In this document: piece after piece, positions 3,674 through 38,774 of the stretch
Layout: the number at the start of each line of letters is the position of its first letter
Numbering within the stretch: the stretch's first letter is position 1
From: Thermomicrobiaceae bacterium
Lineage (GTDB): Bacteria > Chloroflexota > Chloroflexia > Thermomicrobiales > Thermomicrobiaceae
Direction of reading: 5' to 3'
Assembly (NCBI GenBank): GCA_014874455.1
Contig: JADBJL010000001.1
Span: 1-64,000, forward strand
Length of the DNA stretch: 64,000 nt
The notes under the pieces: generated by a model
The model's input: only the letters and a program-made list of their open reading frames with translations
Databases searched by the model: none
Told to the model about the DNA's origin: nothing
Translations under genes and position numbers: made by a program

Positions 3674-4280
3674 CCTCGCTCAGTTTCTGGTGCTCCACCG
3701 CCAGCGTCAAGTCGCCTCGGGTGCGCTCGAGCACTCCCCGCACCATATCGGTCGTCCGGCGTAGAGCATAGGTGACGGCGTCGGGGTAGTCGACCTGTAC
3801 CAGCACGCCGTAGATCTCGTCCATCACGTCCAGCATCGCCTCACCGCGTGCGAGGTCACCGTGGCGGATCGCATCGAGCACATGGCGCCGCAATTCGCCG
3901 GCTGCTTCACCCAGCGCGTTGAGGTAGACGGCATCGTCGACCTGCAGCGTCTCCGGCCCCGGCAGCGGGTTGCCTCCGATGATGGCCCGGGTCAGGCAGG
4001 CTTCGGCGAACTCCTTGTGCGCATCCTGGACATAGCCTGACCAGTAAATGGCGGGGTACTGAGCCAGGTCTGCCGTCAACTGCTCCTTGATCTCCCGGGC
4101 CTGGGCCAGTAGCTCATCGGCCAAGGCATAGTCAGCCCGGTGAACGGCGCGGACAGCGTTGGCGCTGAGGCGTGTGAGCTGGCGCGTCTCGGACAGGGCA
4201 CGCTCCCGTGCGCTGTTCACGAGATCTAACCGGGCCAGAATCCGCTCCGTGACCCGCGAGATCTCGGACGATCGCTCCAT
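3633..4280 (-). CDS. translin family protein
   Basis: 215-aa, almost entirely alpha-helical protein resembling prokaryotic members of the translin family. In eukaryotes translin and TRAX form the RNA/DNA-binding C3PO nuclease; bacterial and archaeal homologues are poorly characterised and may bind or cut RNA. Family features include an N-terminal helix with SSEISRVTERILARLDLVNS, an acidic DAHKEFAEACLTRAIIG helix (EFxEA pattern), and DAVYLNALGEAAGELRRHVL followed by EAMLDVMDEIYGVLVQVDYP. The ATG at 4280 is used; a strong ribosome site is not obvious. It lies 66 bases after the 590-aa gene on the same strand, so the two are probably cotranscribed. That pairing suggests a nucleic-acid or nucleotide role, as inference. 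Confidence 0.75.
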   Translation of the reverse strand: MERSSEISRVTERILARLDLVNSARERALSETRQLTRLSANAVRAVHRADYALADELLAQAREIKEQLTADLAQYPAIYWSGYVQDAHKEFAEACLTRAIIGGNPLPGPETLQVDDAVYLNALGEAAGELRRHVLDAIRHGDLARGEAMLDVMDEIYGVLVQVDYPDAVTYALRRTTDMVRGVLERTRGDLTLAVEHQKLSEALARARGLLSESE

Positions 4281-4346
4281 CCCAGGTACCCCTTATAAGC
4301 AGCTTTTCACCGCACGCTTATGCTCGCTTGGTCGCAGCCTGCGAGC

Positions 4347-6119
4347 TTAGTGCCCGCCCTGGCTTCCGGCAACGGTCGCCGCGGGCTCGACGACGCCCGC
4401 ATGTTCGAAAATACGGCGCAAGATGACCAGCGTCGAAGCATAGGTCGAATCCATGCCGAAGTAGGATAAGCCGCGAGCGCCGAGCGTGTGCGCTCGGCTG
4501 TACGGCGTGTCGGACGCGTAGTGGATGATCCCGAGGTCGACCGGAATTTCGGTCAGGTTGACGTGCTCACCCTGCCCGTAGCGGGTCAGGAAGGTATCCT
4601 CGTAGAGTGCATTCAAGTAGGGCCCGGTCTCCATCTCGACGACCGTGTAGTTCTCTCTGTAGTACAGATCGAGGTAGTCACGGTTCTGCAGATAGGTACC
4701 GAGGACGGAGATCGTCCGCTGGTGATCGAGTGCCGAGCCGTAGATCAGGTATGGCCTCAGATCTTCGGCCCCGAAGCGGTTCCGGAACCAATAGGTATTG
4801 CCGCTGTGCTCGTCGTGGACGACGTCCGGCAGCATCACGTCGCCGATGCGCGCATTCAGCGTCGCCGCCTTACCGAGAATGTAGACACCTTTGAGCTGGT
4901 GAGTACTCGCAGCAACCAGTGAGAGCAAGTGATAGGCTCCAAGGCCCAGGGGGTAGTTGATATTGAGGATCACCGCATCCGAGGAGCGAAGGTCGAAGCG
5001 GCCGAGGCTTTGGAGCCGCGGGTCGAAGTCTTCTGGGCACAGCCGGTCGAGCTCGATGATCTGCACGCCCACGTCGACCGGCCCATCCGGTTCGATCGTC
5101 AGGATTCCCCGTTCACGTTCCTCGCGGTCGCGCTGTGCTCGTTCCTCTGGCCGACTGGCGTAGTACAGTCTGGCGGTGTAGTAGAGCCAGTTTTCCCAAC
5201 TGCTGCGTACCTGCCCGCTCTGGAGCTTGCGCAGCTCCGGTAGAAGCTCCGGATGCTGGGTCTCTTCGATGAAGCGCACCAGCGCGTCGCGTCGGCGACG
5301 AGCAGCGCCGGAGAGAATGTTGGCGATGCTGTGCATGTTCGACGAGACGAAGTAGAGCGGGCGATCCAGCAACCCACGCTCGCTCATGAAACGCTCGACC
5401 GGTGCCCACCATGCGCGCGCCGAGCGCACGTATCCGACGTAGCTGCCAGCCAGGAACTGGATCGTCAGCCGCTTCTTCACCTGCACGACCTTGCTCAGGT
5501 TCTCCCAGAAACGCTCGCTCCAGGCCTGGCGCAGGCGATGCCAGTCCGCCTCCCCGATCAGCAGGCCGGTTTGCACCCTCTCCTCTCTCTCAGGCGATGG
5601 TGGAGACGCGCGGAGCGCTTGGAATACCGCCTGGCGAAGCTCCTCGTCCTGCTGCGCGAGGGTATGCAGTTTGTTCCACTCGATCTGCCAGGCGACGACC
5701 GTCGGGATAACATCGTCGAGATCCGACGCCGAGGCGACGAAGGCGGCGAGGGTACCCTTCCCATCCCAGTACCAGCGGCGACGCCGCCCTGGAGCGGTCA
5801 CCGGCTGCCAGCGCGCCAGGTCGGCAAACCCGTGGCGCGCGAACACCGCCGCGGACTGACCCAGCACGATCCGCTCGGCGTCGACGATCGCCGCCGGCAG
5901 GCGCAGCGTGCTGTACATGAAGGCGTCCATATCAGGCGCGGGCTCGCGGGCTCCCTGATGGAGCAGCGACTCGACATTCAGATGGGCAGGTACCAGCGTC
6001 TCGACCGGCACCGGGCCGGAGCTACGCAGAAGCGTGTTGTAGGTCTTGACGTAGAGGTCGACCTCCCGCTTGCCGGCCTTGTGACGGTCGACGGCATCGG
6101 CGTGCGGCCTTGCTTCCAC
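4347..6119 (-). CDS. uncharacterised 590-aa protein with nucleoside-phosphorylase-like C-terminus
   Basis: I do not know an assigned function. From memory it resembles an uncharacterised bacterial family of about 570 aa (possibly DUF6909), unverified. The N-terminal half is helical, with a conserved-looking VPTVVAWQIEWNKLH segment. The C-terminal third (about residues 360-570) resembles the PNP/UDP phosphorylase fold: GKAATLNARIGDVMLPDVVH followed by VVEMETGPYLNALYE recalls the GD and VEMEs/a signatures of MTA/SAH nucleosidases and purine phosphorylases. It ends with a YSRAHTLGARGLSYFGMDST segment. The start is GTG at 6119 with GGAGGAGG just upstream. No signal peptide is seen. It sits upstream of the translin-family gene, apparently in one operon. 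A nucleotide or nucleoside substrate is plausible but not shown. Confidence 0.8.
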   Translation of the reverse strand: MEARPHADAVDRHKAGKREVDLYVKTYNTLLRSSGPVPVETLVPAHLNVESLLHQGAREPAPDMDAFMYSTLRLPAAIVDAERIVLGQSAAVFARHGFADLARWQPVTAPGRRRRWYWDGKGTLAAFVASASDLDDVIPTVVAWQIEWNKLHTLAQQDEELRQAVFQALRASPPSPEREERVQTGLLIGEADWHRLRQAWSERFWENLSKVVQVKKRLTIQFLAGSYVGYVRSARAWWAPVERFMSERGLLDRPLYFVSSNMHSIANILSGAARRRRDALVRFIEETQHPELLPELRKLQSGQVRSSWENWLYYTARLYYASRPEERAQRDREERERGILTIEPDGPVDVGVQIIELDRLCPEDFDPRLQSLGRFDLRSSDAVILNINYPLGLGAYHLLSLVAASTHQLKGVYILGKAATLNARIGDVMLPDVVHDEHSGNTYWFRNRFGAEDLRPYLIYGSALDHQRTISVLGTYLQNRDYLDLYYRENYTVVEMETGPYLNALYEDTFLTRYGQGEHVNLTEIPVDLGIIHYASDTPYSRAHTLGARGLSYFGMDSTYASTLVILRRIFEHAGVVEPAATVAGSQGGH

Positions 6120-38272: not shown

Positions 38273-38282
38273 GTGAGGACAT

Positions 38283-38316
38283 AGCTTGATCGGTGAGTCA
38301 GCTTGATCAGTAAGTC
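38283..38316. repeat. tandem 17-bp direct repeat upstream of DUF385 gene
   Basis: AGCTTGATCGGTGAGTC (38283-38299) is followed directly by AGCTTGATCAGTAAGTC (38300-38316), 15 of 17 identical. With the -10 at 38267-38272 they span roughly -23 to -56 of the predicted start, a position typical of activator or repressor sites. Confidence 0.6.
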
Positions 38317-38404
38317 GCGGGTTCCGAAGCGTGGAGCGCTCGTTGCCTGTCTACAGTGCTGGCACGACAGAGATGCGCCTGAGCCCGGCGGCAAGGCGGG
38401 TCAA

Positions 38405-38555
38405 TCTCGTCTCCATGCGCACGAGACTGAACTGTCGGTGAAGCCCAGCAGCTCGGCCCCTGCGACCTCGTCTCCACGCGCACGAGGCTGAACTCCCTGG
38501 ATCACGTCCCAGGCGCCCTGGAGGATCCTCGTCTCCACGCGCACGAGGCTGAACT
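38405..38555 (+). CRISPR. short CRISPR array, three type I-E-like repeats and two spacers
   Basis: Three 29-base repeats at 38405-38433, 38466-38494 and 38527-38555 are separated by two 32-base spacers (38434-38465, 38495-38526), giving an exact 61-base period. That is the geometry of type I-E arrays. Repeats 2 and 3 are identical; repeat 1 differs at three positions. Each repeat has a CCTCGT...ACGAGG stem (first base changed in repeat 1) and ends GGCTGAACT or close, comparable to the ...ATGAACC ends of I-E repeats, which suggests plus-strand crRNA. The two spacers are unlike each other. There are no cas genes in the window and no clear AT-rich leader. Probably an orphan or remnant array, or one served by distant cas genes. 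Confidence 0.82.
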
Positions 38556-38744
38556 ACCGTAATGCAGCCGTACCAGCCTGGGATCGTATGCCGGCACGTA
38601 GAGAGCGACTCGAAGGGTATCCCGCGCCGAGCGGTCACCTCGCGGTCGCCTCGCCGAGCCCCTGCTTGGGGATCGAGTCATGCCGGGGACGAGACTCTGC
38701 CGCACGGACATGGGCCGCTTGGCCCTGGCCACTGACCACCTGAG

Positions 38745-38774
38745 TTGACGCTCTCTGCTAGGAGATGCTACACT
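38745..38774 (+). promoter_or_regulatory. promoter of the CAU-anticodon tRNA
   Basis: -35 TTGACG (38745-38750), 18-base spacer, -10 TACACT (38769-38774). The predicted start is about 10 bases before the tRNA. The same transcript could run on into tilS-hpt. Confidence 0.65.

What the first reader, a model, noticed from the sequence alone, without database searches (positions are those of the whole stretch)
38405..38555. Orphan type I-E-like CRISPR mini-array with exact 61-bp period
Three 29-base repeats and two 32-base spacers sit between a DUF385 gene and a tRNA, with no cas genes in 64 kb. Repeats 2 and 3 are identical while the first differs at three sites. If the plus strand is the crRNA strand, the altered repeat is at the leader end, the reverse of the usual pattern. 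It could be a remnant or an array served by distant I-E cas genes. Two spacers of this geometry are unlikely by chance.
Basis: partly seen in the sequence, partly recalled or inferred. Interest (0 to 1): 0.7.

Follow-up and report, generated by a model that had tools for sequence, protein, structure and literature searches.

The report
Orphan type I-E-like mini CRISPR array
A tiny two-spacer CRISPR array, built like type I-E arrays and with one spacer that resembles phage tail genes, sits alone in a genome that has no type I-E machinery to use it, so it is most likely a left-over fragment of an immune memory and an ordinary find.

Summary
Three 29-bp repeats sit at an exact 61-bp period with sharp edges and unrelated 32-bp spacers (8/32 identical); nothing like it arose in 30 shuffles. 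The plus strand of the repeat matches, without internal gaps, type I-E repeats of a congener and a family member (19 of 28 columns; 0 of 2000 shuffles score as high), much better than the minus strand. The genome (3.37 Mb, 99.89% complete) holds no other copy of the repeat, no Cas6e, no Cas7e, and no Cas1 beyond those of its I-B-type and type III-like loci, whose repeats are unrelated. Two congeners carry Cas6e and ordinary 61-bp-period arrays. The array lies in a ~465-bp stretch unique to this genome. Spacer 2 resembles an in-frame motif of phage tape-measure genes (19 of 20 phage hits), but at only 24-26/32; spacer 1 has no consistent target. Best reading: a true but orphan I-E-like mini-array, probably a relic, with no cognate effector here. 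The repeat is a distinct variant whose canonical I-E hairpin is broken; since repeats 2 and 3 are identical, it differed before the array was built. Orphan arrays are a known kind; interest is low to moderate.

The parts
38405..38433 (+). Repeat 1, TCTCGTCTCCATGCGCACGAGACTGAACT
   Evidence: 26/29 identical to repeats 2 and 3
38434..38465 (+). Spacer 1 (32 bp); reverse complement reads AGAELLGFTD; no consistent target
38466..38494 (+). Repeat 2, CCTCGTCTCCACGCGCACGAGGCTGAACT
   Evidence: identical to repeat 3
38495..38526 (+). Spacer 2 (32 bp); reverse complement reads ILQGAWDVIQ, a motif like those in phage tape-measure proteins
38527..38555 (+). Repeat 3, identical to repeat 2
38279..38744 (.). 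Stretch found only in this genome, which holds the array; congeners have 2.3 and 5.1 kb of other sequence here
   Evidence: right edge set by the conserved tRNA promoter

Best explanation
It is a genuine but orphan CRISPR mini-array of type I-E geometry, read on the plus strand, lying in a ~465-bp lineage-specific stretch and now without its cognate machinery. Shown: the repeat-spacer anatomy, the similarity of the repeat to relatives' I-E repeats, and the absence from this assembly of Cas6e, Cas7e and a further Cas1. Inferred: the spacers were once taken up from mobile DNA (spacer 2 perhaps from a tailed phage's tape-measure gene); the array was made with this repeat variant by an I-E adaptation module no longer present; it is now inert or nearly so, since the repeats of both resident systems (I-B type, type III-like) are unrelated to it. 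If an I-E system like those of its congeners entered the cell, crRNAs might be made again, but that is doubtful because the usual I-E hairpin is broken in this repeat.
For: Exact 61-bp period, sharp repeats, unrelated spacers, beyond chance. Plus-strand repeat scores 23.5 against the G001 and G117 repeats with 0/2000 shuffles as high; minus strand 13.5 and 10.0. Congeners G001 and G003 have Cas6e and arrays of the same 61-bp period; in G003 Cas3, Cas7e, Cas5 and Cas1 lie in the same locus. Own genome: no Cas6e, no Cas7e, Cas1 only at C99 and C104, which are an I-B-type and a type III-like locus with unrelated repeats. Repeat unique in the genome and not found as an array in 158 class and 400 phylum genomes. 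Spacer 2: 19 of 20 phage hits are tape-measure genes of Gordonia, Arthrobacter and Streptomyces phages, in one reading frame in all six examined; the reversed spacer and two host 32-mers gave 1, 15 and 5 hits with no such concentration. No promoter found upstream of the array.
Against: No near-identical protospacer for either spacer, so no PAM could be tested. The canonical I-E stem is broken, and the alternative 6-bp stem is no stabler than shuffles (z about -0.8). The base after the conserved 28 varies (G, C, A), whereas it is mostly G in the relatives' arrays. The assembly has 114 contigs, so a small I-E locus could in principle be missing. Transcription is unknown.
Confidence: 0.68

Rival explanations
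1. A working array served in trans: crRNAs are processed by the Cas6 of the resident type III-like or I-B-type locus, or by I-E genes missed in the assembly, and still guide immunity.
For: The genome has a Cas6-like protein at C104 and I-B-type cas genes at C99. Repeats 2 and 3 are identical, and two of the three changes in repeat 1 keep the alternative stem (C-G to T-A at positions 1 and 22).
Against: The repeat is no closer to the I-B-type or type III-like repeats than shuffles are (432/2000 and 1525/2000 shuffles as good). No Cas6e or Cas7e at 99.89% completeness. No promoter found upstream. One paired change is weak evidence, and position 1 may lie outside the repeat.
Confidence: 0.1
2. 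A mini-array that came in on a phage or other mobile element, whose remnant is the ~465-bp stretch, and that once borrowed a host's I-E machinery against competing phages.
For: One to two spacers and no cas genes is the anatomy of virus-borne mini-arrays (PMC6858448). The stretch is unique to this genome and spacer 2 resembles phage genes.
Against: No viral or plasmid match to the stretch beyond weak pieces; neighbours are conserved chromosomal genes; such arrays mostly carry their host's repeat (PMC8616872), and no resident repeat matches.
Confidence: 0.12
3. Not CRISPR: three spaced copies of a hairpin or of a protein-binding site, for example operator sites.
For: Only three copies, no cas genes nearby, inverted ends YCTCGT/ACGAGR that could be a dimer site, canonical I-E hairpin missing.
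Against: Similarity of the plus strand to relatives' I-E repeats (0/2000 shuffles), the same 61-bp period as their arrays, and the concentration of spacer 2 hits in phage tape-measure genes.
Confidence: 0.1

Closest known systems
Type I-E CRISPR arrays of congeners G001 and G003 and family member G117
   Same: 61-bp period, 29/32 geometry, same repeat backbone on the plus strand (19 of 28 columns with G001), TGAAC near the 3' end
   Different: No cas genes, only two spacers, canonical hairpin broken, last base not fixed, upstream region not alike
Orphan CRISPR arrays, such as the I-F remnant arrays of E. coli (PMC8616872)
   Same: A short array without cognate cas genes while related lineages keep the system
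   Different: The E. coli arrays carry spacers against cas genes; these two do not match the I-E, I-B or III loci fetched here. The repeat also differs from the relatives' repeats
Virus-borne mini-CRISPR arrays (PMC6858448)
   Same: Two spacers, no cas genes, one spacer that may match viral genes
   Different: In a chromosomal setting without viral genes, no leader found, repeat does not match a resident system

Membership tests
CRISPR array | Near-identical direct repeats at constant spacing with unrelated spacers | tested here: met
   26/29 or better, period 61 and 61, spacers 8/32 identical; at most 19/29 in 30 shuffles
CRISPR array | Spacers derived from mobile elements | tested here: inconclusive
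   Spacer 2 resembles tape-measure genes at 24-26/32; spacer 1 has no consistent target
CRISPR array | Leader with promoter | tested here: not met
   No sigma-70-like promoter upstream of the array and no similarity to congeners' upstream regions; the scan covers only one promoter type
Type I-E array | 61-bp period of about 29-bp repeats and 32-bp spacers | tested here: met
   Same period as the arrays of G001, G003 and G117
Type I-E array | Repeat sequence of the I-E kind | tested here: met
   19 of 28 columns with the G001 repeat, 0/2000 shuffles as good for G001 and G117, 10/2000 for G003
Type I-E array | Stable central hairpin of the repeat | tested here: not met
   MFE -5.5 and -6.8 against -14 and -12.9 kcal/mol in relatives; another, weaker stem instead
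Type I-E CRISPR-Cas system | I-E cas genes (Cas6e, Cas7e, Cas1) in the genome | tested here: not met
   No PF08798 or PF09344 match; Cas1 only in the I-B-type and type III-like loci
Type I-E CRISPR-Cas system | Protospacers with an AAG-type PAM | not testable with these tools
   No near-identical protospacer was found
Virus-borne mini-CRISPR array | Located in a virus or provirus | tested here: not met
   Only weak short phage matches; neighbours are conserved chromosomal genes

The most novel reading that the evidence does not exclude
The array uses a distinct I-E-derived repeat with a re-drawn hairpin (6-bp outer stem, 10-nt loop, kept by a paired change in repeat 1) and is processed in trans by the resident type III-like or I-B-type machinery: a cross-type guide cassette.
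Probability: 0.04. Interest if true: 0.55.

Novelty: new member of a known kind. Interest (0 to 1): 0.22.

Why it matters
It documents an orphan I-E-like array with an unusual repeat in a lineage whose sister species carry I-E systems, a small case of CRISPR gain and loss between close relatives. If it were transcribed and processed by another system, it would bear on how far Cas6 enzymes and effectors share guides; nothing here shows that.

Tried and rejected
Chance triplet: rejected by shuffles. Repeat family spread over the genome: only these three copies at up to 3 mismatches. Extension of the array: I saw no further repeat unit on either side; the stretch after repeat 3, tried as a third spacer, gave no consistent phage target. 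Anti-cas or self-targeting spacers: best matches in the I-E, I-B-type and type III-like loci and the window are no better than those of reversed spacers. Relatives of the repeat elsewhere: none in viral contigs; one in genome contigs, a lone match at the end of an apparent coding frame with no array around it; one 3-mismatch single copy in the phylum, not examined further. Protospacer searches in viral contigs: strict ones found nothing; looser ones gave a terminase-like frame at 22/32 for spacer 2, rejected, and a recombinase-like frame at 28/32 for spacer 1. Rhizobium phage RHEph10 hit for spacer 1: gapped and in another reading frame, rejected as target. Leader comparison with congeners: no similarity.

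Full report
What is there. Three 29-bp units lie at 38405-38433, 38466-38494 and 38527-38555 with start-to-start distances of 61 and 61. R2 and R3 are identical; R1 differs at positions 1, 12 and 22. Outside the units conservation drops at once, and the two 32-bp spacers agree at 8 of 32 positions. In 30 Markov shuffles of the window no equally spaced triplet passed 19/29 (observed 26/29), and the only such triplet in the window is this one.

Boundaries and strand. The plus-strand repeat aligns without internal gaps, shifted by one base, with the type I-E repeats of a congener (G001: ATCATCCCCACGCACGTGGGGGTGAACCG) and of a family member (G117), sharing 19 of 28 columns with G001; no shuffle of 2000 scored as high, and the minus strand scored far lower. 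So the plus strand is the likely crRNA strand, and the unit may start at 38406 (28 conserved bases plus 33; the period is unchanged). Positions 1 and 22 change together (C-G in R2 and R3, T-A in R1), which keeps an outer stem YCTCGT/ACGAGR; this is a single paired change, position 1 may belong to the spacer, and the fold is no stabler than shuffles, so I give it little weight. The central I-E stem of the relatives is broken here (and by inspection of the alignment).

Machinery. The window is part of contig C68 (99,060 bp) of a 3.37-Mb, 114-contig, 99.89% complete assembly. The genome has Cas1 at C99 and C104 only. C99 holds Cas2-, Cas1-, Cas4- and Cas3-like frames and a Cas5b-like fragment beside a 13-repeat array; its Cas1 is called type I-B (the Cas2, Cas4 and Cas3 labels are mine from reading the frames). 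C104 holds two similar long frames, one with a CARF-protein match, a Cas6-like protein, Cas1 and a Cas2-like frame beside a 10-repeat array; I call it type III-like. Both loci's repeats are unrelated to the mini-array. There is no Cas6e and no Cas7e. Congeners G001 and G003 do have Cas6e and 61-bp-period arrays; in G003 Cas3, Cas7e, Cas5 and Cas1 lie in the same locus.

Place. The neighbours on both sides are syntenic in G001 and G003 (86-93% identity on the left, 77-89% on the right), but the stretch between them differs: about 2.3 kb and 5.1 kb in the congeners, with a TetR-like gene among others, against under 0.5 kb here (gene names from reading the sequences). The stretch 38285-38744 has no match in the other genomes of 158 searched in the class. 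The tRNA promoter at 38745-38774 looks conserved. No promoter or terminator was found near the array itself, and the region upstream of it does not resemble the congeners' regions upstream of their arrays. Whether the stretch is an insertion or what a deletion left cannot be told from one genome.

Spacers. Spacer 2 against 50,697 phage records: 20 records hit, 19 of them in tape-measure genes of Gordonia, Arthrobacter and Streptomyces phages. In all six checked the match lies in the same reading frame, at 24-26 of 32 bases, and encodes variants of ILQGAWDVIQ. The reversed spacer gave one hit, in a minor tail protein gene, and two host 32-mers gave 15 and 5 scattered hits, two of them in tape-measure genes. 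E-values are 0.3 to 3, and tape-measure genes are long and share such motifs, so this is suggestive, not proof. In plasmids the hits are scattered. Spacer 1 gives scattered hits; the best, 28/32, is in a recombinase-like frame of a 4-kb viral contig found by a search shaped to the spacer's own translation, so its weight is limited. No near-identical protospacer was found, hence no PAM test. Neither spacer matches the cas loci fetched here, or the window, better than reversed spacers do.

Reading. Repeats 2 and 3 are identical, so the differences from the relatives' repeat arose before this array was built, not by decay in place; the source was an I-E module with its own repeat variant (inference). 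No such module is found in this genome. The most economical account is an orphan relic. Use in trans by the resident systems, a virus-borne origin, and a non-CRISPR repeat remain as less likely rivals. Orphan arrays and remnants are well described (PMC8616872), so this is a new member of a known kind.

Noticed in passing
G000:C99 (L009:1-6223): An I-B-type CRISPR locus with 13 copies of the repeat GTTTCAAGCCCTCATAGGTACTGTCGGAAC, cut off by the contig end inside a Cas5b-like gene.
   Followed up: partly
G000:C104 (L010:1-6021): A type III-like locus with a CARF-protein match, a Cas6-like protein, a Cas2-like frame and 10 repeats; its Cas1 match is split over two reading frames (3789-4064 and 4063-4638), a frameshift or an assembly error.
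   Followed up: partly
window 38283-38316: A 17-bp imperfect tandem pair (AGCTTGATCGGTGAGTC / AGCTTGATCAGTAAGTC) at the left edge of the lineage-specific stretch.
   Followed up: no
L018 and L020 (arrays in G117 and G001): Some spacers recur in the same order within one array, as if blocks of the array had been duplicated.
   Followed up: no
L022:9854-11740: In the G003 I-E locus the frame right after cas3, where Cas8e would be expected, matches no Pfam or NCBIfam model at E 0.001.
   Followed up: no
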